DNA of 64,000 nucleotides from Vishniacozyma victoriae (lineage: Eukaryota > Basidiomycota > Tremellomycetes > Tremellales > Bulleribasidiaceae). A program made the translations under genes and the position numbers. Location of the stretch: positions 72,001 to 136,000 of the forward strand of contig JADPYG010000089.1 in assembly GCA_017654735.1 (NCBI GenBank), in the 5' to 3' direction. Positions 4,409 through 64,000 of this stretch are shown piece after piece. Under the pieces are notes generated by a model. The model did no database searches. It worked only from the letters and a program-made list of their open reading frames with translations, and was not told the origin of the DNA. Every line of letters begins with the position of its first letter. Positions within the stretch are counted from its first letter, which is position 1.

Positions 4409-6401
4409 ATGGCTGGATCAAAGACGATCTTCGGTACGTCATTTCACCTTCGCAGCGATTCTAACATCCCTTGTGCCTTCTGAGAATGAGATCAGAGTAT
4501 CGGGAGAAATTTCAGGCAAAGAATAGATTGCGAAAAGAGGGCTGTTGGGGAATATTTGGATAAATTAAGTTTTGAAGAAAGTAGCTGACAACCGTAGTCG
4601 CCAATATCCCGTTGTAAGTCACGAACCATAAAGATGTACTATATGGACGACGCCGATTCGGACGAGGCTTGACAAGGTTCTCAGTTTCGGGAGCTAACGA
4701 TACAGTGATACATCAGAAGAACAGCTCGCTCGAGTATTCGCAGAAGCAGGTCCAGTGCAGGGTGTAGAGTAAGTCACCCAGCCACCACTTGATGACAGGT
4801 GTAAAGGAACAGGCTGATAAGTCAGTATCAAATTTGGACCTGATGGTAAACCAAGAGGATTTGGTTTTATTCAATTTTACGGTTAGTCCCTCTCTCACCT
4901 GAATATCGAGTATGTGCTGAACAGCTCCTCTTCATTCTCCACCTCTCTTTCAATCCTTCACTTTTCACTCTTCTTGACGATACGATATATCCGAAACTAT
5001 GGACTCCTATACTCAACTCCCCTCTTTTCCTCGACTTCACTTCCACACTCTCCCCCGACGACCTCCACAACAAACAGATGAAGCAGCAGCAGCTTCTGCC
5101 GTCCGGAATTTAAATGGAGTAGAAGTAAACGACCGAGCGCTCCGTATAGAAGCATCATCCGATACGCCAAATCATAAACAAGGCGGTCGTTCCGGAGGAG
5201 GTGGAGGAGGGAGGGGGGGAGGAGGAGGAGGGGGAGGTAGGGGAGGTAGGGAAAGATCGTCCCCCCCACCGCCATTTAGACCACCACCCCCAGGAGCTGG
5301 GTATGGTGCGCCACCTATGGGTGGACCTGGACCTGGACCTGGACAGGGGTATGGACCTCCTCCGCCTATGGGTGGTGGTGGACCACCACCACCACCTGCT
5401 GGTGCTGGACGGATGGACTTTGGGATGTTACCCCCTGGAATTGATTTGCCTAGGGGCGAAAAAGCTTTGGATCAGATTACAAAGACCTTGGCGGAAATTC
5501 CTGCCGGGCAATTACAGGATGTTATGGCTGGAATGAAGGTGAGTCCAGATACTTCATTCTTTACCTTCATTCTTTACCACCATTCTCGATCGTCATACGG
5601 GAAGAGCGGCTTGTCCGCCTATTACAAGAGTCTTCAACATCATCCTTTATCCGACCCAAAGATTCGCTCCCAACTCCGGGGGTGATATGCAGTACTAACG
5701 CCCAGACTCTGATAGCTACTCAACCAGACCAAGCACACGCCCTCCTCACTCAAAAACCACAACTCGCCTATGCCCTGTTCCAAGCAATGGTCCAATTAAA
5801 CATCGTAGACCCACAAATAATGCAGGTAAGCTAGATTCCCTCCCTTCTCATCTGCTCTACGCCGCCTGACGAAATAGCAAATCCAAGCAACTCAAGCTCC
5901 TCCATCAAATTACCCGCCACCTGCTGCTGCTGCCCCCGCCCCTTACCCCCCACCTCAACAATATAAACAAGCTCCACCCCCAGCTCCATACCCCCAGGGA
6001 GGTGGTGATCCTCGATTAAATTCTTATAGACCTCCACAACCAGTACCAGCACCTGCTCCTGGGTATGGTGGACCACCTCCAGCTCAGTCTTACGTTCCTC
6101 CACCATCTGCCCAAGTTGCGTCGGGATTATCACCTGCTGTGATGGCTCAGTTGAATGTCCTTCCACCTGATCAGAGGGTATGTCTACTCTCTCTCTCTCT
6201 CTCTCTCCCTCATCCTTCCATTACAATTTCGATGCGGAGCTGATGATTAGGACATCCTGGTACAGGTATTGCAAATGACGCCTGATCAGATTAACGGGTT
6301 AGATGCGGAACAGAGGGCTAATATTATGCAATTGGTAAGTGTCGTGCTCCCTATGTGCGGCTTCTGCTAACGAACTGCAGAGACAGCAATTCGGGGTATA
6401 A
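4409..6401 (+). CDS. RNA15: Cleavage stimulation factor subunit CstF-64 / Rna15 homologue
   Basis: This RNA-binding subunit of the mRNA 3'-end cleavage and polyadenylation complex recognises the U/GU-rich element near the poly(A) site. Nine exons are readable (introns near 4434, 4614, 4769, 4882, 5539, 5826, 6178 and 6335). The N-terminal RRM contains VANIPFDTSEEQL (RNP2) and PRGFGFIQFY (RNP1). A low-complexity Gly/Arg and Pro/Gly tract follows. The hinge domain includes DQITKTLAEIPAGQLQDV and ATQPDQAHALLTQKPQLA. The end, DAEQRANIMQLRQQFGV, is the conserved C-terminal helical domain. An earlier ATG inside intron 4 should not be taken as the start, because only the ATG at 4409 supplies the first half of the RRM. 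Intron 7 holds a (CT)10 run. Confidence 0.94.
6187..6206. repeat. (CT)n microsatellite in intron
   Basis: About ten CT units lie just after the 5' splice site of intron 7 of the CstF-64 homologue. They add pyrimidine-rich sequence to the intron and are a likely length-polymorphic site. Confidence 0.9.
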
Positions 6402-6512
6402 TCAATCTCAAACAGATGGAGTGTCAGAAAGGGACGAGCTGGATTAGCATGGATGAAGATCAAGATCAAGGGACATATAGTATGAAACGCATGTATTCAT
6501 CCCACTACCCAA

Positions 6513-46416: not shown

Positions 46417-49173
46417 ATGTCCTCGCCAATGCTCTCAACTACTCACCAACCCCTTGCCAACCCGGACTCTATTGTCCAGGAGGATGATTGGCGACTTACC
46501 GTCCTTACCCCTGGTCTTGTTCGACTTGAACATTCTCCCACTGGTGAATTCGAGGACAAGGCCAGTACATTCGCCATCAAGCGAAACCTCCCCATTCCCG
46601 ACTTTAAAGCGGTCAAGACTGATGCTGGGGGATTGTCGCTCACTACCGCCAATATGATCCTCACTTATGATGGCAAGGCTTTCACCACCCATGGCCTCCA
46701 GGTCTTTGGTGTTGCCATGAGTGAGTTCTATCCACTCTTGGAATGAGATTCGGCTGATGGATAGGAATTGGGGAGAGTGGATGTGGAGGAAGTGCTGAAT
46801 GGCGAATTGGTCTTCCAGATCAGTATGGCCGAAACATGGGCGGTACAGCTCGAACTCTTGATTTCACCAATGGAAAGATTGACGTTGGCGAGGGTATCAT
46901 CTCTACTGTAAGTCACTCTACATGATGATGATATCGTATCTGATACTCTTAGGAAGGGATCAGCATGATCGACGATTCGAAATCAATGCTATTCACCGAC
47001 GATGGATGGTTCACTACCCGACAACCTGGACGAAGTGACATCTACATCTTCTGCTTTGGTCGAGACCATCGAGCTGCCTTCGCCGCATTCTATGCGGTTT
47101 CAGGCCCACCTCCTGTTTTGCCCAGGTGGTCTTTGGGCAACTGGTGGTCCAAGTACTGTATGTTTCGTTTCGACTGACATGTTCTCCATGGCTGATGAGA
47201 CTAGATCCATACAAGCAGGATGAGTACATGGCCCTTATGGACAAGTTCCAGGAAGAAAAGATCCCACTTGCCGTCGCCGTTGTCGACATGGACTGGTAAG
47301 TCTCACTGAGCGTCGTGAGCTGACTTTTAGGCATATCCTCGATATTCCTGCCAATCAAGGAGCTCCCTGGACTGGGTACACGTGAGTGCCTCTCTAAAGA
47401 CTATCAAGTAGTGAGCTAATCGGCACAGCTGGAACAAGGAACTATTCCCTGACCACGTCAAATTCATGGCCGACCTCCATGACCGAGATCTCAAGGTTAC
47501 CCTCAACACTCACCCCGGAGACGGTATTCGATCATTTGAAGAAAGCTACGAGCGAATGTGCAAGAAGTTGAATCGAGATCCTTCCGTCGGCGATGTACGT
47601 CTACCCCAGTATCGTCGACTAATGTCAGGCCGTTTTGTTTGATCCCACCGACCGAAAGTTTCTTGAGGCGTACTTTACCGAAGTTCATCACCCCCTTGAA
47701 GATGAAGGTGTTGACTTTTGGTGGATTGATTGGCAGCAGGGGAACTTTACTCGAACTGAGGGAATTGATCCCATGTGGATGTTGAACCACTATCACTTTA
47801 TGGAATCCAAGAGGCGACTCGAGAGAAGAATGACATTCTCAAGATTTGCTGGTCCTGGAAATCAGAGGTACCCTATTGGTTTCTCTGGTGTAAGTCGCTC
47901 TTGTGTACTCCGATAAGGTGCTGATGACCAGGACACCGAGATTCTCTGGAGCACTCTCTCTTTCCAGCCCGAATTCACCGCTACCTCTGCTAATATCGGT
48001 TACGGATGGTGGTCCCATGATTTCGGTGGACATCATCACGGAATCACCGTCAGTCATTTAGATCTTACGTCAAAATGGGCTAACAAGAAGGACGACGAGC
48101 TCATGATCCGATGGATCCAGCTTGGCCTTTTCTCTCCCATCTTGAGACTGCACAGCAACTGGAATCAATCGATTGTCCGAGAACCCTGGCTCCGAGGTCC
48201 CGAATGTCACAAGATCATGACCGAGGTCCTTCAATTCCGACACCGAATGATCCCGTACTTGTACACCATGTCTGTACGAGCTACTTTGGAGGGCCGATCT
48301 CTCGTCGAGCCCATGTACTACGATCATCCTACCGAAGATTATGCCTATCGAAATAGGAACGAATTCTTGTTTGGATCCGAAATGATCGTGGCTCCCATTA
48401 CCAAGAAGAAGGTATTCTGCACCGACATGGGTTCTGTTGAATGCTGGTTGCCCCATGGCAGGTATGTCGATCTATTTACCGGTACCACCTATGATGGTGA
48501 TCGAGTGATTGTCATGCACCGAACTGCCGACTCGATTCCCGTCTTGTCTGGTGCTGGATCAATCATCCCTCTCGACAATTCCGCCGAAGTCACTACTACC
48601 AACGGTGCATCCATCCCTTCCGCTTTGGAAATCATCGTTACCGTTGGAGTCGACGCCGAATTCACCCTCGTTGAAGATGACGGTACCGGTGAAGATGTTG
48701 ACCATATCAAGTTTTGCCGAACCCCCATCAAGTACATTCAAAAATCAGGCCAGATCATCATCGGCCCGACCAACAGCCCCCTTGTCCAAGTTCGAGACTG
48801 GACCGTCCAGCTTCCAGCGTTCCCCCTCGACCATATCGACCATATCAAGGTCAAGGTCGGCCAATCTCCCGTCGAATTCGATATCGCGCAGGACAAGAAG
48901 GGCGTTACTGTTCATATCAAGAAACCAGTTTCCGCCGATGACCAAGTGACCATCGAGCTCGGAACCGATCTTGAAATGCGAGACAATGATCTATTGTTCA
49001 AGGTTGACCAATTCCTCAAACGAGCTCAGATCGAACATGATACTAAGTTCGAGGTCCTCACAATCATCAAGGCCAATTTGACCAGGGCTGTGCTTGTCAG
49101 TCGGATCGAAGCGACCAAGATGGAACCAGAGGTCCAGAGTGCTTTGATGGAGTTCATTCTCGCGAACGTCTGA
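46417..49173 (+). CDS. GH31 family glycosidase, paralogue B (cytosolic, cluster gene)
   Basis: This retaining GH31 alpha-glycosidase starts MSSPMLSTTHQPLANPDSIV, with no signal peptide. WRLTVLTPGLVRLEHSPTGE begins the N-terminal sandwich. After introns, GCGGSAEWRIGLPDQYGRNM and DIYIFCFGRDHRAAFAAFYA precede the barrel. VDFWWIDWQQGNFTRTEGID carries the nucleophile Asp in an unusual WIDWQQG motif. FSGDTEILWSTLSFQPEF and NIGYGWWSHDFGGHHHG hold the acid/base Asp region. The last large exon (from about 48091) gives WIQLGLFSPILRLHSNWNQS, FRHRMIPYLYTMS and the C-terminal sandwich. The coding exons are rich in C-ending codons, suggesting strong expression. Convergent with the MFS permease at 49338. 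Paralogue A is at 25018-27793. Confidence 0.92.
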
Positions 49174-49337
49174 TCTCTTCTCGTAACGTTTGCTCCTTCT
49201 TCCTTTTCGAGTATACACCTGTTGATATTTTACGTTTCACTGCTTCCTGCGATACTGTTTATGCATGTCTTTCCTTCGCCTATAGAACACAATTCGACCA
49301 ACGTAGCTACATCATGACCCCTTTCAGATCGGGAATA

Positions 49338-51411
49338 TCAATGACCGCCCAATTGCTGTTCTCGAATCGCCTCTTCCGAGTTGGCATCTATCACAGTCCC
49401 CTTGAATTGTCTTGCAGGCAGCTTCTTCTGGAATAGAAGATTGATCTCGTAGTATGCTAAAGTCGTCAGTAGGGAGTGTCGGCGAGGAGGATCTACTCAC
49501 ATCTGTCTTTCAACTCGGGAAGTCGGTAAAAGCACCACACAGCCGACAGAGCTGCGCATGGAGCCCAGAAGAAAGCAGTCTTTCTGATATTGTCAGTGGA
49601 GGCGGGTATAGGAATCTTCAAACTCACCCCTGCCAGCCGAAAGCGGTCGGATTGATCATGTAGGCATTCAAGATGTTGAACACGATACCCTGGATCGAGT
49701 AACACATTCGAGCGAAAGCCAAAGTCTTGTTTCGGAGTCGAGTGGACGATGTTTCACTGATGATGGCGTAGCAAGTAGGGCCGAGGAAACCCGTATAACC
49801 GATCATGAAGGCCTGAAAGTCAGTTTAGGTATTGGGACTCGTATAAAGAGGCGTTGAGAGCACGTACCATCTGTACACCAGCTTGTACCCACTTTGCCGC
49901 AGCGTTCCCTTGAATACCATATACCGCTGCGACACCGACAATCAAGAGATTGAATGTGCAATAGACAAATCCTGCGATGTAGATAGTTCGACGACCGAAA
50001 TGGTATAGGAGGAACATGTTGAGGAAGTTGGCTCCAAGCTGAATCGCCGATGTCCCCCATCCGAGATCGTAAGCTACCGACTGGCTGATGCCGGCTTGTT
50101 GAAAGACATAAGTAGTATTTCCAGCAAACATGGCTCCTGACTCATCAGCAGCATTCCCAGGGGATCTCATCTGACTGACCTGAAAAGTTCTGAAGCACCC
50201 AGACAAAGACCGTAATCTCGGTCCTCCTGAGGTCGACACCCTTGAAGATATCGATCCATCGTCCAGAACCGGTAGTCTCCGCCATATCCTTCTCGAGCTG
50301 AGTAGTTCGTACCATATTGGCAACCTGCTCATGTGCTCTATCTTCCATTGTCTTGCCTCCTAGTCGCTTAAGTGACCGCTCAGCTTCTTGCAGCTTGCCA
50401 TTTCGCACAAGCCACCAGGGAGACTCGGGTGCTAGGAATGACAGAATGATGAGCTAGGCGTCAGTATTCAGCAGTCGAGTGACAGCTATAACGTACAGGG
50501 ACTGGCCAGAGCCATTGAGTAGCGTATGGGATTCTCCAAGACCAATTGTTGGGAATAGTCTGGGTTCCATTGATGACTCCGCTCGACACAAATCCACCTG
50601 AATATTAGTTACGCACCTGTCTGAGGGGACGATCGGACTCACCAATGTTCCAGCAGATATTGACATAACCAGTCATGTATGCCCTCAATTTAACGGGGCA
50701 AATTTCGGACGCATACGCCTCACCGAGACAAGCGAAACATCCAAAGGGGAACCCAATCAACAGACCAGCAGTGAGAAGCATGGCCTTGTTGGTAGCGAAG
50801 AAGAAGATGAAGACGATGGGGATACAGATAGCGTAGTTGATCATGAGAGACTTTCGGTATCCGTATCGGTCATTGAGCCAAGCACCCCAGTATACACCAA
50901 ATATAGCACCGATGGAAGGGGCTTGTCCAATCGCAGACTGACATCAGTACTTGTTTGTCTGTGATGCTCACCTGCCAAGCTGCTGTGGGTTGCCAGTCAT
51001 CAAGCTCGGGAAAGTATGATCCGAATGTCTACTTGTCAGCTAGGAAGCAGGTCCACCTTGCTCACCTTTCGATATTCGATCATACCCCACAAGTTTCCTT
51101 GTAGTCCCCAATCGTATCCCTCCATGATGATCGAGCAAGATGCTACGATAGACCAGAAGACTGCCTGTATCATTAGCACAGCTAAACGGAAGGTGTCAAA
51201 GACGTACCGCTTTGTAGATCTTAAAGGCCTGCCATGTCGTCATGTCATGTTCAAAGTGTTCAGCCTTGTTGGCGTCCTCGACCAGTATCTCATGCTTGAC
51301 CTGCTCGACACCATTCTCGACGTGCTCGGCCTCGAAATGTTTCTCTTTATCATCGTGAATATCCTCGACTTGTGATCCGCTGTGATTGACTACTGGTACT
51401 ATCTCGGCCAT
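49338..51411 (-). CDS. MFS sugar permease, alpha-glucoside (maltose) type
   Basis: This is a twelve-helix H+/sugar symporter of the major facilitator superfamily. It starts MAEIVPVVNHSGSQVEDIHD with a charged cytosolic N-terminus. EGYDWGLQGNLWGMIEYRKT is helix 1. GAWLNDRYGYRKSLMIN is the loop 2-3 signature. AYASEICPVKLRAYMTGYVN and SFLAPESPWWLVRNGKLQEA (PESP..L) are typical of fungal alpha-glucoside permeases. HFGRRTIYIAGFVY and GYTGFLGPTCYAIISETSST follow, and the end is FKGTVIDANSEEAIREQQLG. Several short introns. Its start faces the GH42 gene across a 560-bp shared promoter, which suggests co-regulation. It likely imports the oligosaccharide used by the cytosolic glycosidases. Confidence 0.92.
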
Positions 51412-51971
51412 TGTGTTTTGGTCTAGACGAGTCGATGTCGGGGGAAGAAGAAGTTGTGGGGTTCCATGGGCTCTCCATCGTCTTTATATATCCTTCAGCT
51501 CAAAGCCTCTGCATCGTACTAGTCTAGACGGTTGATCGGCAAAAGGCACCCAGAGGCAGTCCAATTTGTTGTCGCGACTTGGTAACTGATGGTCCGCGCG
51601 GATCTGACACCGGCCAAAGTGACTTGGCCAAAACGCCACCCGTTTCAATGCCGTCTCTACCGCCTCTTCGACCGGTTTATACGGCATCGACTGTGAACCA
51701 TTTGAACGAGAGCATCGGCTTGTTCATGCCATGTCTGACGGTGAGGAGCGGTGTTGTAAACGGTCGACCGCTAAGACCGACGCCTACACGGCCAAAGAGT
51801 AGGAAAACTGCCTCTGGTAAGCCGTTTCAAAGCCTCGGATATCCAACTTGAACCGTGCCCGGAAACCGTCTCGGCCCATTTCCGAAGCGACTGCCCGGGC
51901 CGTTAATTCGCCGCGACCTTCAGCCCATCAAAAGAACAATCCTGCTATTCGTCCTCATACACATTCTCACC
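51412..51971. promoter_or_regulatory. Divergent promoter of the MFS permease and GH42 genes
   Basis: This 560-bp region has many CGG/CCG words: a perfect palindrome CGGTCGACCG (51761-51770), GGCCAAAGTGACTTGGCC near 51614-51631, and ACCGGTTTATACGGC near 51671. Paired CGG triplets are the usual targets of Zn2Cys6 factors such as the one encoded at 61850. The role is inferred from composition and position. Confidence 0.55.
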
Positions 51972-53984
51972 ATGTCTTCCACCAGTACTCACAAGTTTCC
52001 CCAGCGAGCCGACAACAAGTTGTACTATGGCGCGGATTACAATCCGGAACAATGGGATCGAGAAGTTTGGGAGGAGGATGTCAAGTTGATGAAGGAAGCT
52101 GGCGTCAATGTCGTGTCTATTGGCATCTTTTCGTGGGCTCTCCTTGAACGATCAGACAATGTCTGGGACTTTGGCTGGCTCGACGATGTATGCGATCTCA
52201 TGCACAAGAGCGGTATATCAATCGATATGGGGACCGCAACCGCTTCGCCCCCGCCTTGGCTCAGTACCGCCCATCCAGAAATCCTCCCCACCTTCAAAGA
52301 CGGTACAATTTCGTCACCTGGTTCTCGAAACCATTACCGAATCACATCCCCTGTCTTTCGCAAGTACGCTCTACGCCTAGTTCAGAAACTAGCCGATCGA
52401 TACGGTTCACACCCTGGTCTCATTGCTTGGCACGTCAACAACGAGCTTGGTACGCCCGATTACTCAGATGATGCTGCTGCCGCGTTCAGGATTTGGCTCG
52501 AGAAAAAGTACAAGCACATTGATAAACTCAACGAGGCGTGGGGTACGGCTTTTTGGTCTCAGCGATACAACGACTACAACGAGATCCTTCCTCCTCGGGT
52601 CGGAAACACCTTCATCAACCCGACTCAGCAGCTAGACTGGGCCCGGTACACCTCGGACTCGTTGTCCGACTACCTGGACGACGAGACTGCGATCCTGCGG
52701 AAAGCGAGTCCCGATATTCCAGTCACTACCAATTTTATGCTCGCGGGGCAGACTAAGGGTATGGACGTCGCCAATTGGAAGGTCGACTTTGTTTCGAATG
52801 ATCACTACCGGATGCCGGGTCGGGAGCTGGATGCGGACGAGCTGTCATTCTCGGCAAGTCTGACGAGCGCTGTCGCCGGCTTTAACCCATGGTGGCTGAT
52901 GGAGCATTCGACAAGCGCCGTCAATTGGCAATCGGTCAACACTCGTAAGAAGGCTGGTCAGCTCATCCGTGATTCGTTGACGCATGTTGCCCACGGTGCC
53001 GATGCCGTTTGTTTCTTCCAATGGCGACAATCACGCTCAGGAGCGGAGAAGTATCACTCGTCGATGATTCCTCACGCAGGACCCAGCTCCCGCCTCTTCA
53101 AGGATGTTGTTCAGCTTGGTCAAGACCTCAAGACCTTGGCCGAGATTCGCGGTTCCCGAAAACAGCTCGCCTCCGTCGCTATTGTCTGGGACTGGGAGTC
53201 GTGGGTCGCAAGCGAGCAGGACGGTCATCCTTCAATATTGGTCGACTATTTCCGAGAAGCTCGCGAGTGGTGGGTCGCCTTGATGGACCTTGGGATTCGG
53301 GTCGACGTCATCACTGCTCATCACGATCTCTCGCCATATAAGCTCGTCGTCGCCCCCATTTTGTATCTCGTTCAGGACTCTGTCAAGTCGAACATCGAAA
53401 AGTTTGTGAAAGCTGGCGGTCACTTTGTCACGACGTACTTTTCTGGTATCGTTGACGAGAACGATCATGTTAGACTTGGAGGGTATCCTGGCGCTTTCAT
53501 TGATCTACTTGGTATACGGATCGAGGAATGGGCTCCGCTACTTCCCAACGAATCGGTCGAGCTCGATGATGGGTCCGTCGGCACGATATGGACCGACGAT
53601 ATCGATTTGACCTCGGACGTCCACGTTCTCCGCAAGTACGCTTCCGGCGAGCTAGAGGGCAAACCTGCCGTCACTCTCAAGTCTCACGGCAACGGATCAG
53701 CCGCATACGTCTCGACACGCTTGAATGTAGAGGGTCTCAAATCGTTACTGCCCGGGTTATTGCAGAACTCAGCAGTCGAAAGCGGTCTTCCAAAGTCTTT
53801 GAGGTCGACTGTGGAGCAAGTCATGAGGACAGATGGCAAGACGGAGTGGGAATTCTGGATCAACAGGACCGATGGGGAGATCGACGTTTCCGAGGCACCG
53901 GGTCAGCTCCTTTTGGCATCGGGTGGAGGCTCGGTAGGAAAGCTTGCGGGGAGAAGTATTGCCGTATTTCAACGAGATTTATGA
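51972..53984 (+). CDS. GH42 beta-galactosidase, intronless
   Basis: This GH42 beta-galactosidase is 670 residues, the normal family length, in a single exon. MSSTSTHKFPQRADNKLYYG leads into YNPEQWDREVWEEDVKLMKE, the family's first strand and helix. GIFSWALLERSDNVWDFGWL and TATASPPPWLSTAHPEILP follow. The acid/base Glu is in LIAWHVNNELGTPDYS and the nucleophile Glu in WWLMEHSTSAVNWQ. The trimerisation domain includes VWDWESWVASEQDGHPSILV and a YFSGIVDENDHVRLGGYPG region. No signal peptide. In-frame codons before 51972 lack ATG. GH42 is chiefly bacterial; its absence of introns here and its place in a sugar cluster suggest ancient transfer. Likely substrate: beta-galactosides in the cytosol. 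Confidence 0.94.
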   Translation: MSSTSTHKFPQRADNKLYYGADYNPEQWDREVWEEDVKLMKEAGVNVVSIGIFSWALLERSDNVWDFGWLDDVCDLMHKSGISIDMGTATASPPPWLSTAHPEILPTFKDGTISSPGSRNHYRITSPVFRKYALRLVQKLADRYGSHPGLIAWHVNNELGTPDYSDDAAAAFRIWLEKKYKHIDKLNEAWGTAFWSQRYNDYNEILPPRVGNTFINPTQQLDWARYTSDSLSDYLDDETAILRKASPDIPVTTNFMLAGQTKGMDVANWKVDFVSNDHYRMPGRELDADELSFSASLTSAVAGFNPWWLMEHSTSAVNWQSVNTRKKAGQLIRDSLTHVAHGADAVCFFQWRQSRSGAEKYHSSMIPHAGPSSRLFKDVVQLGQDLKTLAEIRGSRKQLASVAIVWDWESWVASEQDGHPSILVDYFREAREWWVALMDLGIRVDVITAHHDLSPYKLVVAPILYLVQDSVKSNIEKFVKAGGHFVTTYFSGIVDENDHVRLGGYPGAFIDLLGIRIEEWAPLLPNESVELDDGSVGTIWTDDIDLTSDVHVLRKYASGELEGKPAVTLKSHGNGSAAYVSTRLNVEGLKSLLPGLLQNSAVESGLPKSLRSTVEQVMRTDGKTEWEFWINRTDGEIDVSEAPGQLLLASGGGSVGKLAGRSIAVFQRDL

Positions 53985-54101
53985 GAGATCGGGGATGAGG
54001 AGTCTCGTGTCTTGCATGTATGATAAACAGCACAATTGCATATGCTACCATGTGATACAAGTTAGAACGTGGAGTCCAAATGCTCAATAGCGATATCCTT
54101 T

Positions 54102-56109
54102 TCAAGCTGTTCCCTGAGCCTGAGCTAGATCGAACTCTTCCTTAGCTAGCTGAGCTTTGGTCTTTGTCGTAGCGAATTGACGAGTGGGCGTTTTATTCTC
54201 GAACAACTCGTCAATCTCCTCGTAGCTTCGCCCCTGGCCCATCAGTACACCCTTCACGATGGGCGAAAGTACTCACTGCTACTTCAGGAACGGTGAAGAA
54301 CATGGCGATCCAGCCGGCAACCCCGAATCCAAAGAATAGGTAACCTATTTGTCAGAGCAGTGCGAGAGAGCTAGACATACCGGTCTTGTAGCTCCATCCA
54401 GCTTTCTGCACCGAGAGAAGAATCGGAGTGACAAAGTTGGTAAAGATACCGAAGCAAGCGGTGCAGGCCGCGGCGAATCCAGCAGTCTTGGCTCGCAGTC
54501 GAGGAGTTGCGATTTCGGCGAGATAGACGTATCCGATTGGAGCGCAACTGCTTGCGTAGCAGAAAGTCCATAGGCAGAACAAGGCGATGGTGAGACCTCC
54601 AGGTGGTACCCAGTTTAGAGTTCCGACCACGGCGATCGACAAACAAAAAACTGTCATACCACCGCCGCCGAGTAAGAGCAGGATCCTTCGGCCGAACCTC
54701 TCGATATTATACCACGAAATGACTTGAGCGCTGAGCTGAATACACTTGACGATGACGTTGCCGAGGAAAGGGTCTTTGACTCCCGCTGATCGTCAGCCAC
54801 ACCTTGACGATTGCAGGACCTACCAAGCTGGAAGAAGTATGTGGTGTACGACAATACAAAAGACAATCCTCCCAGCCCTTGGAATTGGAGGGGTAGCCAT
54901 GAGACCCATGTACGTCGTCTGGTCGTCAGTGTCCGGTACTGATGTCTGCTCACAAGTTGGTTCCACGGAAGATCTCTGCGTAGCTCGCGTTCTTTTGCTC
55001 CAGTTGCTGTCGGTTCTGCTGTTCTCGTTCATAATTAAGAACTCGATACTCGTGTTCCACATCATAACCATCAATTCCTCCATAGATACGCTTCAACATT
55101 TTCTTGGCATTCTCGGGTTGATCTTTGTTGAGATAATACCCTAAAGGTCAGCTAATGCACCGACGAATACATTGAGGACGTACAGGGGGTTTCGGGGATG
55201 ATGATAAACGCAATGGCCATCAACCCTATGAAGACAAACTGGGAATAGATCGGAGACAAGTAGCCGTCTTGAGAGACAGCTACCTGCAAAGCAATGGCGG
55301 CAGCAAACCCTCCAACACCAAACCAAAAATTGTATGTGGCGATCAAAGCACCTATATTATAAGCCTAGACTTCGACAACACGCAGGTGGCGTACCGCGGA
55401 GCATGTGAGGTCTACATATCAGTATTCTGTCCACATAAGTAAGAAGGAGACAACCTACGCAATTTCACTGATGTATACCGGAATACCAGTCTGCACCATA
55501 CCAGTTCCCCAGCCAGCGAAAAGTCGAGCGACCAGCCAGACTGGATTTGACTTGGCTACAATCTCCAGCACGACGCCCAAAGTCAAAATGACAGTAAGGA
55601 GAGCCAAATTGAACTTTCGACCAAAGCGATCCGCGGTCAGGGGACCGGAAAGCATCCCTATTATTCAGGCCAAGTCTTTGGTTGGACTTCGTGCTCACCT
55701 ATAATCTGTCCAACTGACTGAACTGCAGTCCATGCTCCAACATATACAGAGTCCAGTGCACAATTGCCGTTGGCCTCGGTGACGGTGCAGAATTGAGCAA
55801 TGAAATGCTTGTTTGCAACGATAGAGCCGGGGACTGTGCATTTAGAGGCGACCCGGGGCAATGTTGGTGTTCAGTGTACTCACTACTAATCAGGTACCCA
55901 TCCATGATTGCTGCCCATGCGACGAGCATAGCAAACAACACGGCTTTTCTGAAGACCCAAACAGCTTGACGCCTGGGCATGTCCCTCAAAGGCGAGACTG
56001 GTACCTCTTCAGAGTCGTCACGATCCAGCTTCTTGGCGTATATGGCCTCAGCATCTTCTATAGCGATATCGGTCGTCTTGATATCTGGATGAGCTTTAAC
56101 TTGGTCCAT
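54102..56109 (-). CDS. MFS sugar permease, lactose/hexose type
   Basis: This is a second twelve-helix sugar transporter. MDQVKAHPDIKTTDIAIEDA is the cytosolic start. VLFAMLVAWAAIMDGYLI is helix 1. GPLTADRFGRKFNLALLTVI is the loop 2-3 motif. VARLFAGWGTGMVQTGIPVY, PETPCWYYL-like sequence (PETP..Y) and WYNIERFGRRILLLLGGGGM follow. Helix 10-11 is represented by CAPIGYVYLAEIATPRLRAK. The last exon ends EFDLAQAQGTA, with the stop at 54102. The layout resembles fungal lactose permeases and related general sugar transporters. Next to a beta-galactosidase, lactose or galactoside uptake is a plausible role. It is convergent with GH42, with about 117 bp between stops. Confidence 0.9.
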
Positions 56110-56759
56110 CGTTGTGGTGATGAGGGGACAGTCACTACCTGGCCCTTCGGCTTTATACCTGTCAACGACTCCTCAAAGCCGTACGCTGCCCCACCCCCGG
56201 CGAGTGCCCCGCCGACCCCCACTTGGAGCTAACAAAGTAAGGTGTATGATCAATCCTTTTCCCCCGACGCGTAAGGTCCCGAGCTCGGTGCATTTGATCC
56301 CAAATCGGGACGCTTGGTAGAATGGGCTTAAGCGCGCTGGACGCGAGTGATCTACATACTCCACATCGCATTGTACGCTATGGAGTAAACATAAGCCGCA
56401 GCTCCACAGATCTGAGCGGCCCGTTTGTGCCGGACAAATTCGATCCTTTTCGATTTTCGGAACCTCCTGCACCGAGAATGCACAGGGAGAGCCTTCACGC
56501 ATGTTGACGCATGTTAACCACTCTTGTCTCTTGGGGAGGGATAGTCAAAATGAGATTTAGAACACCATCGTCCATCAGAGGTAATGAGGCTGGATGTATA
56601 CAATGACGATGTGGCGAGAATCGTGAAACCGGTGTTCCGGCGCCGAGAGTATATGCTATAAGTTAGGAGTCGGCACAGCCTGAACAGCGTCAGAGTCAAA
56701 GACGACCTATTGAGATGCATAGGGTCTTTATATATAGAGTCTTTACAGAACTAGACAAA
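56110..56759. other. Upstream region of the second permease, with a shared CGG element
   Basis: About 650 bp separate the permease start from the GH78 stop. Minus-strand frames here lack family patterns. The region includes CCGGTGTTCCGGCGC at 56629-56643, listed separately. Confidence 0.5.
56629..56643. promoter_or_regulatory. Shared cluster element CCGGT-N3-CCGGCGC, copy 1
   Basis: CCGGTGTTCCGGCGC lies about 520 bp upstream of the second MFS permease ATG. It contains two CGG triplets five bases apart in the same direction. The same 12 fixed positions recur at 59622. Confidence 0.5.
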
Positions 56760-59446
56760 CTACGGCACAAAGTTGTCGGGAATGAGCACACTCTGCGGTC
56801 CTGGGTGTCCTTGAGGTGGCCATCGCTCATCAGTCAACCACCGGCAGGTGAAGGTGTGCTTCCCAGATCCAATCTCCTCATGTACGCCGGGTAGTTCAAC
56901 CAGTGCTTGGCTATTTGGCGGAACCGTGACTTTGACCGACAATATCTCTTTCAGCAAAGTCCACGAGACAGCGTAAAGACCATAGGGAGAGTCGAATGAG
57001 GTCGAAGCGGATGTCAAGGTACCCCCGGGCTGAGGTCGGATCAGAGCCTTCTTCCATCCCGATTCCAGCGGTGAGAGACCACCGACAGTATGATGGAGGA
57101 AGGCCGCAACCGAACCCAAAGCATAATGATTGAAGGAAGTCATTTGGCCCGGATTCACCGATCCATCGGGGAGCAAGCTATCCCAGCGCTCCCACTGGTA
57201 TCGTCAGCTCTTTCTTATCGGCTTTACTCACTATCGTGGTAGCACCCATTCCTACCGAGTACAGCCAGCTCGGATTATCCTGTTCTTGCAACATCCGATA
57301 TGCTAGGTGAAGCTTTCCGTGTTTAGCGAGATTTGGCAAAATCAGTGGCGTTCCGGCGAAACCTGTCGAGATCTTGAAAAAGTCCCACTTGATGAGCCAT
57401 TCGAGGCGCTCGGCGGTATGCGCTCGCTGATCTTCATCTACCAGATCGAACCACAAGGCGAGAGTCAGGGCTGCCTGCGTGTCCGACGATATCCGACCAT
57501 TCTTGGTGACGTACTCGTCTTGAAAGAGCTTACGAAGTCGCTGGTACTCTCTGCCGTAGTGAGCAGCGGCTTGCGATCGACCGATTTGTTTGGCGATTCT
57601 GGCCACCAGCCCGGTCGTCGAGACCAGGTACGCATTAGCAGGTAGCAGGTAGTCTGTGCGACCGTGGGCAGGGTACTGAGGTGGAGCTTTCGGGTCCAGC
57701 CAATCGCCGTACTGAGCTCGAGAGCCATCCCACATCCCATTCGCCAATCTTGGGACTCCTTTTTCAAGCCAGATCTGCATGCTTTCGAACTGCTGTTCCA
57801 GGATCGTATCGTCACCAAACGCCTGATACAGATCCCAGGAAGTGATGGCAACTACATCGGCCCAGGCGCCATGTGGCTTGGGCTTGTGACCACCGAGAGG
57901 GTTGACGGCGTCTTTAGGCGGAGGGGTCCACGGAACAAAGATTGGCGGCACACCGTCATATTTGATTTGTTCGGCAGCAACATCTTTGAGCCATCCATCG
58001 AGGAACGAGTAGGTGTCGAACAAGTAATTGGCGGTAGGCGCGAAGACCTGTATATCGCCAGTCCAGCCAAGTCGCTCGTCCCGCTGAGGACAGTCGGTAG
58101 GAAGTGATACAAAGTTGCCCCTCATCCCCCAGACAACGTTCTCATGCAGCTTTGATATCATCTTGTGCGAGCAATCGAAATGACCAGTGCGACGAAGATC
58201 GGAAGCGATCACGACCGCAGTAAAATCTGCCATATTGATTGGTCCCTCATAGCTGACTTCGACATACCTGACATCAGCTCAAGAACTTTCAATAAGTTGC
58301 TTACCGGAACCCAAAAAAGGTGAACTTTGGCTCCCAGCCTTTGGTGGCTCCCCCAAGTTTGAGAGCGGCTCTAGCTAGCGCTGTTCTTAAAGGTCTCACT
58401 CCCAGTTCCCCATTCTCCAGGACTTCGGCATGCCTGAACGATAACTCCGATCCTTGCTTGAGGTCCGTCTCGATTCTGACATGTCCCACCAAATTCTGTC
58501 CAAAGTCGAGGATGGTTTTGCCTGTCGGAGTGGTGATGAGCTCGATGGGCTTGATTTCCATGACTCGTCTCACGGGTGGAGCCTCCGAAGAGATGAGCTG
58601 AGCACGAGGGAATGGTAGAATTTCCGCGGGTCCCAAAGCGTCGTCTAAAGTGGACAGATGTTTGGTGTCCACGACCTCTCCGTTATAGATCTCGGACTCG
58701 AGAACATGACTGGCCAAGTGGGACCAGGTGCTGTCGGTGACACATATGATTTTTCCACCAACCTCCACCTGACCCATGAACCCAGGTCTCTCACCCCAGA
58801 TATTCCTATTCGTCTTGCCCAGTCGACCAGCGTACCATCCTTCGGCCACATGAGCGATGACTTCGTTTTCCCCCACTTTGAGGTATCTGCCGATGTCGTA
58901 GGTCTGATAGTTGAGGTGATAGTCGTAAGAGGTCCATCCAGGCGTCAAAAGCTGGTCACCGACTCGATGTCCATTGATCGTCACTTCGTAGATCCCAAAA
59001 GCCGTCGCGTAGAGTCTTGCATTCTTGGTACTTTGGGCTGAGAACGTCTTGCGCAAGCGAAATGGTCTTTTCTGTAGCGCAGGATCCTGCAGCTGTCCAC
59101 TGATCATGGAGCAGGACCAATCGGTAGGTTCAAGCAAGGCCACTTCCAACGAAGCCTCTGCCCAAGGGGTCGTGGTTCCATCTTCACCAGTAGCTTGTAC
59201 TCGGATTGAGGCCGATTCTCGTGACCGTAGAAGGCGGCTAGGCCAAGGAACCAATACTGAGCGAGCCGAATTTCTGGTATGAGACTCTTCTACTCCGTTT
59301 CGTATGATTGTAATCTCGTAGGCCGCCTGAATCCAATTTTTCGCGTCGGTTTCTGCGAAACGCCATGACAGTCTTGGCTGGGATTTGGCTATACCAAACC
59401 CTGACTCGTGATGCTCGATACTGACTTGAGCGATTCGGACAGACAT
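56760..59446 (-). CDS. GH78 alpha-L-rhamnosidase (cytosolic)
   Basis: This inverting GH78 alpha-L-rhamnosidase removes terminal alpha-L-rhamnose from glycosides. It starts MSVRIAQVSIEHHESGFGIA without a signal peptide. SQPRLSWRF, then RPFRLRKTFS and RLYATAFGIYEVTINGHRVG form the N-terminal jelly-roll domains. TPGWTSYDYHLNYQTYDIGR and GKTILDFGQNLVGHVRIETD follow. After a small intron the (alpha/alpha)6 barrel shows LPTDCPQRDERLGWTGDIQV, with the catalytic acid in the D/E-rich motif. FVPWTPPPKD, WLEKGVPRLANGMWDGSRAQ and YGDWLDPKAP come next, then a last exon with PDGSVNPGQMTSFNHYALGS. The end is SVLIPDNFVP. About 880 residues. Two introns are visible. Divergent from the GH5 gene across 297 bp. 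Confidence 0.94.
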
Positions 59447-59743
59447 AGTGGTGTTGTTTGGGAGTCTAGATTTGATCCAATCGGTCCCAGAAGTCGGGTG
59501 GGGGAGGTATCCACTCGCGGCCCGGTCTACCAGACTCGTCGCAACATCACCCCGAATTAGTGGGACACCACTAAACGCCGAAAACCAAGCCCCCGCGATT
59601 CACCCGAGATCCAACGTCATGCCGGTCGCCCGGCGCTTTATCCGGGCCTTGTCCGCCGATGCTCTTTAGAGGTTGGATCACTCTGTGCAACCCATGCCTG
59701 ACCTTAGCTCTATCTACCAAAGCCAAACCTACGATCTAAAGAA
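59447..59743. promoter_or_regulatory. Divergent promoter of GH78 and GH5
   Basis: This 297-bp GC-rich region is shared by two glycosidase genes. It includes GGGTGGGGGAGG near 59497-59508, compatible with a Mig1/CreA-like repressor site, and the CGG element at 59622. Roles are inferred. Confidence 0.5.
59622..59636. promoter_or_regulatory. Shared cluster element CCGGT-N3-CCGGCGC, copy 2
   Basis: CCGGTCGCCCGGCGC lies 108 bp upstream of the GH5 ATG. It is identical to the element at 56629 except for the three central bases. Confidence 0.5.
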
Positions 59744-61873
59744 ATGGACGGTTTTCTACAAGTGAACGGTGACAAGATCGTCCCTGACGGAAAGCCCATA
59801 TTACTGAAAGGTTGGAACACTCCTCCAAGGTGTGTTGAGCTGACTCTCAAGGTGCCGCACTTGCAGGATGGAGTACGTCCAGCTGTCTGTGACTTGCTGA
59901 TGAGAGTGAACATGGAAAATTTCATCACGTAAATGTCTGTTTGCAGCCAGTGTCGCCTGGTCTGATCAACAGCGGATACACCGGTCACGAGTTTCAAGTG
60001 CGGGCTGAGCTCAAGAGAAGGCTAGGAGAAGAAAATTACCAGTTCTTCTTTGATAAGGTATGGAATCGAACATACTGAGCTGAAACTGGTTCCTCGAGCA
60101 TTTCTTCACCGACGAAGACGCGATTCTTTTCTCTCAGCTTGGGCTGAATTGCATCCGAATTCCGGTATGTCTGCGGGCCTATGCGACCTGACTTCGGCAG
60201 ATCAACTATCGGCATTTCGAAGATGACTCCAACCCGAGGATCATCAAGGAGTCAGGATTCAAGCATCTAGATCGGGTCATCGACATTTGCGCCGAACACA
60301 AGATCTACACCGTGATTGACCTGCATGCTGCCCCAGGAGGTCAGCCATCATACTCCACCGCCGACTGACCTCAAGGACAGAACAACGATTGGCATTCTGA
60401 CGCCGGGAACCACCAGGCGAATTGTAAGCGATAATTGCCGTAGACTCTAATGACACCAGTCTGGATCCACAGGGACTTTCAAGATCGGGCCGTTGTGCTA
60501 TGGCAGCACCTAGCCAAGGTGGGGCAGTCTCTGCGCATCACTGACCATAGCGATACCGAGACCATACATGGGTCGCCGGATATAACCCCCTCAACGAGCC
60601 GACCGATGAGGAGCATACGCGACTGCTCGACTTTTACGGTCGAATTGACGGCGTCATTCGTGAGATAGACCCACACCATATCCTGTTTCTGGAGTGAGTC
60701 CGTGTAAAGAAAGAAACTGATGCTTAGCGGAGACAATTATGGTGCGGACTTCTCCAGGTTCAGAGAAAGAGCTCTCATACGGAACGCTGTGTATGCGTGT
60801 CATGACTACTCCTCGTAAGGACCTGGTGACCTATCATTCCGCTGATGCAAGATATGGCTTCCCGTCATTTACAGGGCGATTCACCGTAAGCCTTGCTAGT
60901 CAAGACCCGCTGATCGGGAGCGAACTCCAGGGCAAGTTGAAATTCACGAACGTCAATTCAAGCGAAAGGTCGAGTTTATGCTGGAAATCGGGGTAAGTTA
61001 ACAAGTCAAAGAGATCATTGAATCGGTAGGCACCCATCTGGAACGGTGAATTCGGGCCCGTGTACCAGAGCGCCGACGATGGCAAGCCGGATTGGGAAGA
61101 GACCAATGACTCTCGACTGGAGGCATTGAAGCATCAACTCGAGATGTATGCCAAGCATGACGTATCTTGGTCGATCTGGCTTTGGAAAGGTGGTGTCGAT
61201 CTCGGAGCTATTGACCGGTGCTGAGCATACAGATATCGGATATCAGGGCATGGTATATGTGAACGAAGACACACCTTACATGCGATTGCTGAAGCCGTTC
61301 CTCGAGAAGAAAAAGGTGAGCCCAACGCGCAAACGTCTCGCTGATGACTAGCGCCTAGCGGCAGATTCATGGGGAAGTGACGATAGACATGTCCGGCATA
61401 TATTCGAGCCGATCGAGCAATGGCTCCTCGATGAGGTACCTGGAGTTGTCAACCGGTATCCAAAGATGCAGCGACAGCCAAAGAGATCCGTCGCAAGGGT
61501 CCTCAGAGAGATTGTGCTATCTGTACGTTCCGTCTGATGGCGCCCCTGATGAAAATAGGAAGAGCTAGTCCACGAGTACGGCGAGTTTTTCGAGGGCAAG
61601 ACAAAGGACGAGCTCGAAGATTTGGCTAGGAGCTTCTCGCTCGGTAAGTGCGCGTTGGCGACCAGAAGCTGACCTTTAGCCAATTGTACCAAGCGAGCCA
61701 AGTTGAATGCTATCTTGACCGAGGATGCGTCGAAGCGATATGGCATACTACTGAGCTGGAATCTCGGCTCTTCAGGGTTTGCCAGCCAGGGCCTAGGTTG
61801 TAATGGTAGAATTGCTTCCGTATTCATGTTGTTGATGTCATCTGTCCTCCATGTTCGAAGCTGGACCATCTAA
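59744..61873 (+). CDS. GH5 family beta-glycosidase (cytosolic)
   Basis: This GH5 (beta/alpha)8 glycosidase resembles fungal exo-beta-glucosidases. MDGFLQVNGDKIVPDGKPIL begins without a signal peptide. A 21-nt exon, GAALAGW in frame, links to MNMENFITGYTGHEF. The barrel shows GLNCIRIP-INYRHFEDDSNP, YTVIDLHAAPGGQNNDWHSD, GYNPLNEPTDEEHTRLLDFY (acid/base Glu in NEP) and PIWNGEFGPVYQSADDGKPD (nucleophile Glu). DVSWSIWLWKDIGYQGMVYV follows. A C-terminal extension of about 150 residues is less typical. Six or more introns. If the last exon has no further intron, the stop at 61871 overlaps the next gene's start by 24 bp. Substrate: probably a beta-glucoside, perhaps after rhamnose removal. Confidence 0.87.
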
Positions 61874-63794
61874 ACCGAGACTTAGAGCAAACAAGGCATG
61901 TGAGAACTGCAGACTCCGCAAGACTAGATGCTCCGGAGTAACACCATGTGAGCCATGCAAAAACGCCGGCATAGAAGGTCAATGCTTTGTGAGAAACAAA
62001 GCGCGCCCAAACAGGTGAGTGCGGTTCTTTCAGCCACGCTTACAGTAGACCCGCGCCCTCCATAATAGCTCGTACTAGGATCGAGCAATTCAGCCCACCC
62101 GCTGCATCGAATCTATCATATGCAGCACCCTCGTCACTCCAAGGTGTCACTCAATTTCCTGCTGCCCTCGTATCTCCTTCATCACCTCGGCAGAATCCGC
62201 TGGATTACCTGAAAGAGTTTGTGCAGCAATGGGGTACCGAGAATGGTGAGTGACCTTAAGCCCAAGAGCAACGATACACTAGATCTGTCTGATTCTTTGC
62301 AGGAATCAATCCGGAACTCCTTCTATTTCACGATAGCCCTCGCTTGTCGAAGCTGGCTGCCCCATCTTTACTGCCCTACCCGATGCGATATGACTTGGAA
62401 GACAGCTTGATGGATTGGTGCCTATCAGAGGATCTCCCTTATCTCAAGTGTTTGGACGAGCCAAGGCTCAGGGACCTGTATTCGAGATATCGGGCTTTAC
62501 CGGAAACTCTCACTGGGGATCAAATCGCTCTGATATACGCCTCACTATGTCTCGCTCGCTATAACCAGCTTCGTCGAGGAGGGGCATTGAAGAACAGAGG
62601 CCCACCTACGGTATCACGGGAGGATCTGACTTACTACCAAATGGCCAGGGAAGCTTTGGGGTCTTGGGAGACGGCTAGCATCACCGGCATGTGTGAGTCC
62701 CGATGTTGGAATTGACTGATGCCAGGGGCTCTATCCTGCCTTGCCATGTATGTTCAGCTCAATGGCAGTCCAGGGGAGTTTGGGGATATCACAGCGCTTT
62801 GGGCACGATACATTAAAGATTTGGGACTACACAAACGAGATATCGCTCAATTGTACCCTGAGCAGGATCTCGGCGAGACGTTTCTCACGTCGTACTGTTA
62901 TGGCGAGACGTGAGTGATAAGAGCTGCCAAGGTCCATGATCTAATCATGCAGGCTCCGCGCAATCATGACGGATCTTACACCCGCGATCCCGTTTACCCA
63001 AATCGACCTGGAACCCGATCGTATTCCAAACGGCATCAGTCTCAGTATGTCTCGAGCTTCGAATCATGCCGTCCGATATCTCTGCGATTACGCCGACACC
63101 TCAATGGATCTAGACACCGATGCTTACATCGCCGCCTCTGAAGACGAATGGTCTAGCGACATGGCGTTCCTAAGGGCCCAACGAATGAGAGGCATGGACA
63201 GGATCAAGCAGGGATGGGCAGAGATGCGCTTGCATTGGTAAGTCCCCTCCCAGGAGTCTGGCTTACGGGTTCAGGTTACGCATTCTACTATACATCCCTC
63301 GTTTGTCGGGCACCGAAAGTCAAAAGGGCCCTGCTCTGATGGTACTCGCTCGATCGCTGTTCAACATCATCAACATTCACACCGAGTCAGCACAGGCTGG
63401 AAAGCTCGATCCCTGCTGGCCGCAGCTGATCCGGATCATGACATGCGGGCAACTACTCGTCCTCTGTTGCGCCCGTGGAGAACTTCACACTCTTGAAGCA
63501 ACTGCCATGTTTGCTCGACTCATTGCGTTGCTCGGAGCGCATATGGCTTTCTGGCCAGCCGTGCAAGACGCCATCACTGGTTTCCGACATGCTGCCCTGA
63601 GATTTGGTACGTGACGCACCGAGCCTGCAGCTGACTCTGCAGATGTCACCGTGATTGGAACCCAAATAAAACCGAGAAAAGACTCGCCATTCGATCAGAC
63701 AGAACCCTTTGACGGCGCTGACTGGTCAGCGACATTCATAGATCCTGATGTGGATGTCCCCGCCGACCTCCCAGAGCAAGGAACGCTTTGGTGA
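61850..63794 (+). CDS. Zn(II)2Cys6 transcription factor, probable cluster regulator
   Basis: This is a fungal binuclear zinc-cluster activator. The start at 61850 gives MFEAGPSKPRLRANK, then ACENCRLRKTRCSGVTPCEP. The cysteine spacing is C-x2-C-x6-C-x5-C-x2-C-x8-C, the exact Gal4-type pattern. The middle homology region appears as LYSRYRALPETLTGDQIALI, ARYNQLRRGG, LGSWETASITGMWALSCLAM-like sequence and ARYIKDLGLHKRDIAQLYPE. The later part has LIMQAPRNHDGSYT and TPAIPFTQIDLEPDRIP. The C-terminus is acidic (DPDVDVPADLPEQGTLW), which suits an activation domain. The stop is at 63792. Downstream of four glycosidases and two permeases, it is the natural candidate to control them. Confidence 0.88.
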
Positions 63795-64000
63795 TCGGTG
63801 TAGCTCGCTTCGCTGTAGACCCATCAGGGGCGGACAGCGCCGAGGTTGCTTCCTTTGGGTCAATGAAGTCTGTGTGGCATGCATCTCAGCGTGGACTAGC
63901 GTAGAATCGTTCATGTGTGGTGTATTATCGGATATCCAGTCGTTTAGCATGTCTGGCGGGTCGCGGACTCGGCGACCGGACCGCGTGAGCCGTTGTATTT
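63795..64000. other. Downstream flank to window end
   Basis: Non-coding sequence after the zinc-cluster factor. I see no further gene before the window ends. Confidence 0.4.

What the first reader, a model, noticed from the sequence alone, without database searches (positions are those of the whole stretch)
46417..63794. A self-contained glycoside-utilisation cluster: four cytosolic glycosidases, two sugar permeases and a zinc-cluster regulator
Seen: GH31, MFS, GH42, MFS, GH78, GH5 and a Zn2Cys6 gene follow each other with no unrelated gene between. All four hydrolases start without a signal peptide. Known: GH78 removes rhamnose, GH42 galactose, GH5 beta-glucose, and GH31 mostly alpha-glucose-type sugars. 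Inference: the yeast imports an intact mixed oligosaccharide or plant glycoside and dismantles it inside the cell, a fungal analogue of a bacterial polysaccharide-utilisation locus. I know of no described cluster with this gene set in a basidiomycete yeast.
Basis: partly seen in the sequence, partly recalled or inferred. Interest (0 to 1): 0.85.

Follow-up and report, generated by a model that had tools for sequence, protein, structure and literature searches.

The report
Yeast gene cluster for plant glycosides
A yeast of the Tremella group carries, side by side, genes for several sugar-cutting enzymes that seem to stay inside the cell, sugar importers and a regulator, with two of the enzymes probably of bacterial origin, which suggests that it imports small mixed-sugar plant molecules and takes them apart inside the cell.

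Summary
In detail: GH31, MFS, GH42, MFS, GH78, GH5 and Zn2Cys6 genes lie in this order at 46417-63794 with no unrelated gene between, and no hydrolase has a signal-peptide-like start. The cluster is not self-contained: it runs past the window with a GH2 beta-glucuronidase and a third sugar porter, then a secreted-looking AA9. Refined: GH31 is of the GH31_u1 (alpha-1,3-glucosidase) type; GH5 belongs to a fungal group whose members bear mixed names (beta-xylosidase, xylanase, endoglucanase), most likely beta-xylosidase; GH42 and GH2 are single-exon genes whose nearest non-fungal relatives are actinobacterial. Five hydrolases plus three porters in 24 kb exceed random placement. Best reading: a catabolic cluster that imports small Rha/Gal/Xyl/GlcA-bearing glycosides or oligosaccharides and trims them in the cytosol. 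Substrate, co-regulation and conservation are unproven: listed GH5 and GH78 relatives are not neighbours in 10 of 10 more distant species, no shared promoter motif survived testing, and GH31 fits poorly. A new variant of a known kind (fungal catabolic gene cluster), moderate interest.

The parts
46417..49173 (+). GH31 of the GH31_u1 (alpha-1,3-glucosidase) type, 820 aa, 8 exons; least certain member because it is at the edge and has two paralogs elsewhere
   Evidence: Pfam PF01055 E 8.4e-60; best solved relative 7wj9, 600 bits; model
49493..51411 (-). sugar porter MFS1, 524 aa, 9 exons
   Evidence: PF00083 E 6.8e-71; TIGR00879 sugar porter 262.9 bits, cut-off 237.8
51412..51971 (.). shared divergent upstream region of MFS1 and GH42
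   Evidence: gene models; no significant shared CGG-type motif
51972..53984 (+). GH42 beta-galactosidase, 670 aa, single exon, probable bacterial ancestry
   Evidence: PF02449 E 6.3e-145 and PF08532; tree and identities
54102..56109 (-). sugar porter MFS2, 543 aa, 10 exons in the model
   Evidence: PF00083 E 3.5e-80; TIGR00879 255.3 bits, cut-off 237.8
56760..59446 (-). GH78 alpha-L-rhamnosidase, 870 aa, 3 exons
   Evidence: five GH78-related Pfam domains in order; 6gsz 760 bits; the organisms named among the 120 listed relatives are fungi, best 63%
59447..59743 (.). shared divergent upstream region of GH78 and GH5
   Evidence: gene models
59744..61873 (+). GH5, perhaps subfamily GH5_22 (beta-xylosidase type), about 480-511 aa, 17 exons in a hand-made model; extreme C-terminus unsure
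   Evidence: PF00150 E 3.2e-28 (earlier model); 9ku5 'putative beta-xylosidase' 252.6 bits (earlier model); 79% to Dioszegia hungarica P0121
61851..63794 (+). Zn2Cys6 transcription factor, 557 aa, 7 exons; start overlaps the modelled end of GH5 by 23 bases
   Evidence: PF00172 E 9.8e-5, 22.8 bits, cut-off 21; model
63795..64000 (.). start of the upstream region of the GH2 beta-glucuronidase, which lies outside the window at L044:128-1942 (contig C12:136128-137942), followed by porter MFS3 (L044 about 2500-4403) and an AA9 gene (L044 about 5405-6500)

Best explanation
A fungal catabolic gene cluster for small mixed-sugar glycosides or oligosaccharides. Shown by sequence: genes for five hydrolases of different families without signal-peptide-like starts (GH31_u1-type, GH42, GH78, GH5 perhaps GH5_22, GH2 beta-glucuronidase), three sugar porters and one Zn2Cys6 regulator, contiguous over C12:118417-140403, in a yeast of the Tremellomycetes probably near Dioszegia. 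Inferred: the porters bring in glycosides bearing terminal rhamnose, galactose, xylose, glucuronic acid and perhaps alpha-1,3-glucose; each exo-glycosidase removes its own terminal sugar in the cytosol, in the order set by the molecule; the regulator switches the genes on in response to substrate or product. Likely substrates are plant glycosides (saponin- or flavonoid-type) or trimmed gum/arabinogalactan side chains on plant surfaces. The set combines fungal genes (GH78, GH5, porters, regulator, probably GH31) with two genes of probable actinobacterial ancestry (GH42, GH2).
For: Domain content and order. No signal-like N-terminus in 5 of 5 hydrolases, with the open frame of the AA9 neighbour as positive control. 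Both porters tested pass the sugar-porter cut-off (MFS3 by Pfam only). GH2 passes the NCBI beta-glucuronidase equivalog cut-off (850.4 vs 544) and keeps NEP, EYG and NKKGVFTR. It is the only full GH2 match of the genome beside one weak partial match, and the GH5 is the only close copy beside one 24% match. Clustering exceeds the random-placement simulation. GH42: 15 rows (cluster gene, 13 proteins without organism name, and Saitozyma) form a clade with support 99/91, Streptomyces being next at 56-59% in the list. GH2 falls among Actinomycetota. Intracellular use of imported oligosaccharides by a cytosolic GH5_22 has been proposed in another yeast, where the gene is strongly induced on xylan (PMC13130702, passages).
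Against: No expression data. Listed GH5 and GH78 relatives are not neighbours in 10 of 10 more distant named species, and Saitozyma GH42 is on yet another contig. No shared CGG-type promoter motif after 60 tests (best uncorrected p 0.017). GH31_u1 does not fit the other four activities well, has paralogs at C12:97k and C12:535k and sits at the edge. I know of no single substrate that calls for all five activities. The specificity of GH5 is unsure, since names in its family are mixed. The regulator's nearest relative in the genome sits among genes that do not look carbohydrate-related by eye.
Confidence: 0.6

Rival explanations
1. A loose carbohydrate-rich neighbourhood: sugar genes gathered on this contig arm without acting on one substrate; each gene answers to its own signal.
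For: Other sugar genes lie on the same contig: GH78 at C12:25k, GH31_u1 at C12:97k, porter-like matches near 33k, 59k and 66k. No common promoter motif. Listed GH5 and GH78 relatives unlinked in 10 of 10 sampled species.
Against: Nine genes in a row with no other gene found between, two divergent pairs and a regulator inside; the outlying sugar genes just named are about 19 kb or more away, with a Dus gene on the left edge.
Confidence: 0.25
2. Gum arabic/arabinogalactan-protein use: secreted enzymes elsewhere free Rha-GlcA-Gal oligosaccharides; GH78, GH2 and GH42 then strip rhamnose, glucuronic acid and galactose in the cytosol.
For: Side chains of gum arabic often end in Rha-alpha-1,4-GlcA on beta-1,6-Gal; Fusarium enzymes work on a Rha-GlcA-galactobiose tetrasaccharide (PMC8377490, passages). 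GH78, GH2 and GH42 have matching sugar types.
Against: In the same paper the enzymes specific for gum arabic rhamnose belong to GH145, PL27 or a new lyase family, not GH78, and the Fusarium glucuronidase is GH79, not GH2. No arabinofuranosidase was found in the cluster. GH5 and GH31 have no role.
Confidence: 0.15
3. Recycling of fungal polymers: beta-xylosidase, beta-glucuronidase and alpha-1,3-glucosidase act on fragments of glucuronoxylomannan-type capsules and alpha-1,3-glucan of the yeast itself or its neighbours.
For: GH31_u1 enzymes of Lactococcus and a fungus cleave nigerose, and a role in fungal alpha-1,3-glucan metabolism was proposed (PMC9061262, abstract and passages). Capsules with beta-xylose and beta-GlcA are typical of the class (recalled).
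Against: No alpha-mannosidase was found in the cluster, and these polymers do not contain rhamnose (recalled), so GH78 is unexplained.
Confidence: 0.1

Closest known systems
Fungal catabolic (metabolic) gene clusters, such as those for galactose or allantoin (review PMC4347624, seen only as start of abstract in the listing)
   Same: Adjacent enzymes, transporters and, here, a Zn2Cys6 regulator for use of an uncommon nutrient
   Different: Five glycosidases of different families; two with probable bacterial ancestry; substrate unknown; co-regulation untested
Bacterial polysaccharide-utilisation loci
   Same: Several glycosidases, transporters and a regulator together; works alike in outline
   Different: MFS sugar porters and a Zn2Cys6 factor; no SusC/SusD type protein among the genes found; genes on both strands, so not one operon
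GH31_u1 alpha-1,3-glucosidases LlGH31_u1 (7WJ9) and the fungal CmGH31_u1 (PMC9061262)
   Same: 600-bit match over residues 15-659 of the query; catalytic Asp pair and residues matching His280, Gln343, Phe391 kept
   Different: Tyr99 position holds Gly in the alignment; extra C-terminal part; genomic setting
Beta-glucuronidase of 5c70/5c71 (Aspergillus oryzae, recalled; the listing says Glucuronidase)
   Same: Best solved relative, 807 bits over nearly the whole length
   Different: Not among the eight closest rows of the cluster GH2 in the alignment, which are bacterial (up to 62.7%); sits in a cluster here
Intracellular GH5_22 of the yeast Trichomonascus vanleenenianus (PMC13130702)
   Same: Perhaps the same GH5 subfamily, predicted cytosolic, proposed to act on imported oligosaccharides
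   Different: That paper shows xylan induction and the term 'gene cluster' does not occur in its main text; here there is a cluster and no induction data

Membership tests
fungal catabolic gene cluster | functionally related genes contiguous beyond chance | tested here: met
   models and Pfam; simulation, with assumed gene totals
fungal catabolic gene cluster | transporter and pathway-type regulator inside | tested here: met
   three porters and a Zn2Cys6 gene; that the regulator controls these genes is not shown
fungal catabolic gene cluster | co-regulation by one substrate | not testable with these tools
   no transcript data; promoter motif search gave nothing significant
fungal catabolic gene cluster | gene order kept in relatives | tested here: inconclusive
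   listed GH5 and GH78 relatives not neighbours in 10 of 10 more distant species by locus tag and contig length; lists capped at 120 rows; no close relative available
bacterial PUL | SusC/SusD transporter pair | tested here: not met
   the transporters found are MFS sugar porters
GH2 beta-glucuronidase | equivalog model over cut-off and glucuronate-binding N-x-K motif | tested here: met
   850.4 vs 544 bits; NKKGVFTR at 580; role of the motif recalled
GH31_u1 alpha-1,3-glucosidase | catalytic Asp pair plus His280, Gln343, Phe391 of LlGH31_u1 | tested here: met
   alignment, residue roles, positions; numbering offset of 20 worked out by hand
GH31_u1 alpha-1,3-glucosidase | Tyr99 of LlGH31_u1 | tested here: not met
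   aligned with Gly; gappy stretch next to an exon junction; not known to define the group
GH5_22 | falls in the CAZy subfamily | tested here: inconclusive
   no CAZy models here; best solved relative a putative beta-xylosidase; listed names mixed: XYL5, xylanase, endoglucanase, cellulase; 54% to XYL5_2 P0165
GH78 alpha-L-rhamnosidase | full set of GH78 domains | tested here: met
   five Pfam domains in order, each over its cut-off
GH42 beta-galactosidase | catalytic and trimerisation domains | tested here: met
   PF02449 and PF08532; no NCBIfam match; sugar specificity not testable here

The most novel reading that the evidence does not exclude
A plant-surface yeast carries a purpose-built intracellular deglycosylation locus for plant triterpenoid saponins or similar glucuronides, whose sugar chains join Gal, Xyl or Rha to a GlcA on the aglycone (soyasaponin and Quillaja/Caryophyllaceae type, recalled). 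Rhamnosidase, beta-galactosidase, beta-xylosidase and beta-glucuronidase strip these in turn, and two of the four enzymes were gained from actinobacteria and fitted into one regulated fungal cluster.
Probability: 0.13. Interest if true: 0.78.

Novelty: new variant of a known kind. Interest (0 to 1): 0.55.

Why it matters
If the genes work together, a yeast would have a eukaryotic counterpart of a bacterial glycan-use locus that works inside the cell, partly built from bacterial genes. That would make it possible to test how fungal catabolic clusters take up foreign genes, what plant-surface yeasts live on, and whether MFS porters carry mixed oligosaccharides or glycosides. The enzymes could also serve to trim plant glycosides.

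Tried and rejected
Alien composition of the cluster: rejected. Its GC (0.49-0.54 per 2 kb) and GC3 (0.54-0.61, 8 genes) exceed most of the left part of the window (11 other gene models, GC3 0.35-0.57), but 15 other loci of the same genome, mostly fetched as coding matches, have GC 0.48-0.53, so the left part is low rather than the cluster high. Shared regulator site: 60 CGG/CCG spacings in 6 upstream regions against 300 shuffles; best uncorrected p 0.017, not significant. Cluster relatives in viral contigs: the GH42 scan found nothing. Bacterial model for the cluster: in 80 bacterial loci around beta-glucuronidase genes (the best 80 of 473; flanks up to 10 kb, shorter in some), a GH78 relative lies nearby in 6 of 80, a GH42 in 1 of 80, GH31 and GH5 relatives in 0 of 80 at E 1e-15 (no control for the base rate), so nothing suggests that the cluster was taken over whole. 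Counting sugar porters with PF00083 failed because only 9 of 246 candidates were scored. The first gene-finder run joined all genes and was dropped; the second was too cautious. A stretch of GH5 after FFFDK, where relatives have FLE, remains doubtful. Papers: the listing for 'GE32' showed no paper on 9ku5. Searches for fungal or basidiomycete clusters of this kind listed no title that describes this gene set; only the listed titles and abstract starts were looked at (passages of one, PMC7147457), and only open-licence papers are held.
Full report
What is there. The window is bases 72001-136000 of contig C12 of an 11.58 Mb genome in 17 contigs. The nearest named relative of the cluster's GH5 is from Dioszegia hungarica (77%, 79% with the corrected model), then Kwoniella, Kockovaella, Saitozyma, Naganishia and Papiliotrema, so the source is a tremellomycete yeast probably near Dioszegia; the species was not identified. 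Modelled introns are 32-64 bases long. GH42 is a single exon.

Edges. To the left lies a tRNA-dihydrouridine synthase (Pfam Dus, E 1.4e-17), whose open frame ends near 45727. To the right the window stops inside the cluster. In L044 (C12:136001-144000) follow a single-exon GH2 (L044:128-1942), a third sugar porter (Pfam Sugar_tr E 8.1e-43 on one open frame; 36% to MFS1 on its longest match) and an AA9 gene (E 1.1e-11 on its second open frame, nothing on its first) with a hydrophobic, signal-like stretch before HGHV. After that an open frame tested gave no Pfam hit. So the cluster has at least nine genes, five of them hydrolases without signal-like start. Whether AA9 belongs is open.

What the enzymes are. 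GH31: the only strong solved relatives are 7wj9 and its variant (600 bits; the next is at 139 bits). PMC9061262 (abstract and passages) names 7WJ9 as LlGH31_u1, selective for nigerose, and reports a fungal homolog that also cleaves nigerose. Residues matching His280, Asp341, Gln343, Phe391 and Asp394 are kept; Tyr99 is not. GH5: best solved relative 9ku5, called a putative beta-xylosidase. The organisms named among the 120 listed relatives are fungi, and the protein names are mixed: XYL5 (two), endo-1,4-beta-xylanase 5, endoglucanase C, cellulase, glucan 1,3-beta-glucosidase. PMC13130702 (passages) says that GH5_22 holds endoglucanase and xylosidase activities and describes a cytosolic yeast member strongly induced on xylan. 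That the present gene is GH5_22 is my inference; no CAZy model was available. GH78: five domains; organisms named among the listed relatives are fungi. GH42: GH42 plus trimerisation domain. GH2: over the beta-glucuronidase cut-off, with catalytic and N-x-K motifs (the roles are recalled).

Location in the cell. The highest mean hydropathy of any 10 residues in the first 45 is 0.07-1.19 for the five hydrolases (GH5 in its earlier model) against 2.7 in the AA9 open frame. The full-length fungal relatives of GH42, GH5 and GH78 that I read start in a like manner by eye. This is a hydropathy test, not a trained predictor, and an upstream exon cannot be excluded without transcripts.

Origin. GH42: the cluster protein groups with 14 proteins, 13 without an organism name (66-96% identical) and one from Saitozyma sp. 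JCM 24511 (63%); Streptomyces follows at 56-59%. The tree used 40 of the 120 listed proteins, the two GH42 of this genome and one bacterial locus; it was drawn from a midpoint root set by that very long bacterial row. The second GH42 of the genome (C12:635k) is closer to Streptomyces rows (up to 58.8%) than to the cluster GH42. GH2: among 80 bacterial loci (best 80 of 473) and 5c70, it falls inside an otherwise actinobacterial group of 56 rows (SH-aLRT 99) that also holds 5c70, with weak support for its exact place (85-86); the quick method was used and the tool warned of long branches and unusual make-up for this row. Transfer of bacterial beta-glucuronidase genes to fungi has been reported before (Wenzl and others, recalled; not in the listing). 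Bacterial ancestry is thus likely for both genes; number and timing of transfers are unknown.

Chance. With 75-200 GH genes and 44 or 80 porters placed at random, 5 GH plus 3 porters within 24 kb came up in at most 0.0002 of 20000 trials per setting; five GH alone came up in 0.001-0.13. The families are also rare here: one close GH5, one full GH2 match, two GH42, three GH31_u1-like loci, four GH78 loci.

Conservation. Fungal DNA of relatives was not available. Locus tags and contig lengths let me compare the listed GH5 and GH78 relatives in ten species (Kwoniella pini, K. shivajii, K. newhampshirensis, K. dendrophila, K. mangroviensis, Kwoniella sp. CBS 6097, Cryptococcus sp. DSM 104549, Saitozyma sp. 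JCM 24511, Cutaneotrichosporon cavernicola and C. oleaginosum). In 0 of 10 are they neighbours: in nine the contig lengths differ, in K. mangroviensis the tags are 4742 apart. Each list shows 120 rows only, so further paralogs may be missed. In Saitozyma GH42 lies on a further contig. No close relative with both genes was listed. So the cluster is either young, confined to a small lineage, or lost elsewhere. A survey of Tremellales CAZymes (PMC7147457, passages) discusses GH78 but its main text does not hold the term GH42; its supplements were not seen.

How it probably works (mostly inference). Porters import small glycosides; GH78, GH42, GH5 and GH2 remove rhamnose, galactose, xylose and glucuronic acid from non-reducing ends in the cytosol; the Zn2Cys6 factor controls the set. 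The genome holds MR_MLE enolase-family matches at three places, one of them weak, the family to which the fungal L-rhamnonate dehydratase belongs (recalled), so use of released rhamnose is possible. GH31_u1 does not fit these sugars and may be a neighbour rather than a member.

Verdict. A real, non-random fungal sugar gene cluster, larger than reported, with two genes of probable bacterial origin. Substrate, induction and conservation are unproven. It is a new variant of a known kind.

Noticed in passing
window 25018-27793 (-): A second GH31_u1-type gene, 56% identical to the cluster's GH31, lies about 19 kb to the left; a third lies at C12:534844-537896.
   Followed up: partly
L002, L046 (C12:635-641k): A second GH42, about 56% identical over its longest match, lies near a GH43 gene.
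   Followed up: partly
C12:25-34k (L006, L127): Another GH78 sits near an SMP-30-type lactonase gene and two porter-like matches, possibly a small rhamnoside cluster.
   Followed up: partly
window 51930-51971: In frame just before the GH42 ATG the DNA reads as a hydrophobic stretch (RTILLFVLIHILT) without an ATG of its own; translation from a spliced or non-ATG start would give a membrane anchor.
   Followed up: no
window 61851-61873: The modelled end of GH5 and the start of the Zn2Cys6 gene overlap by 23 bases on the same strand; one end may be misplaced.
   Followed up: no
L128, L129 (C11:1506-1519k): The nearest relative of the Zn2Cys6 regulator lies among genes that by eye look like an epsin and kinases, not sugar genes.
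   Followed up: partly
L055 (Promicromonospora panici): The bacterial beta-glucuronidase that pairs with the cluster's GH2 in the tree (weak support) is also the only one of 80 with a GH42 nearby (45% identical).
   Followed up: no
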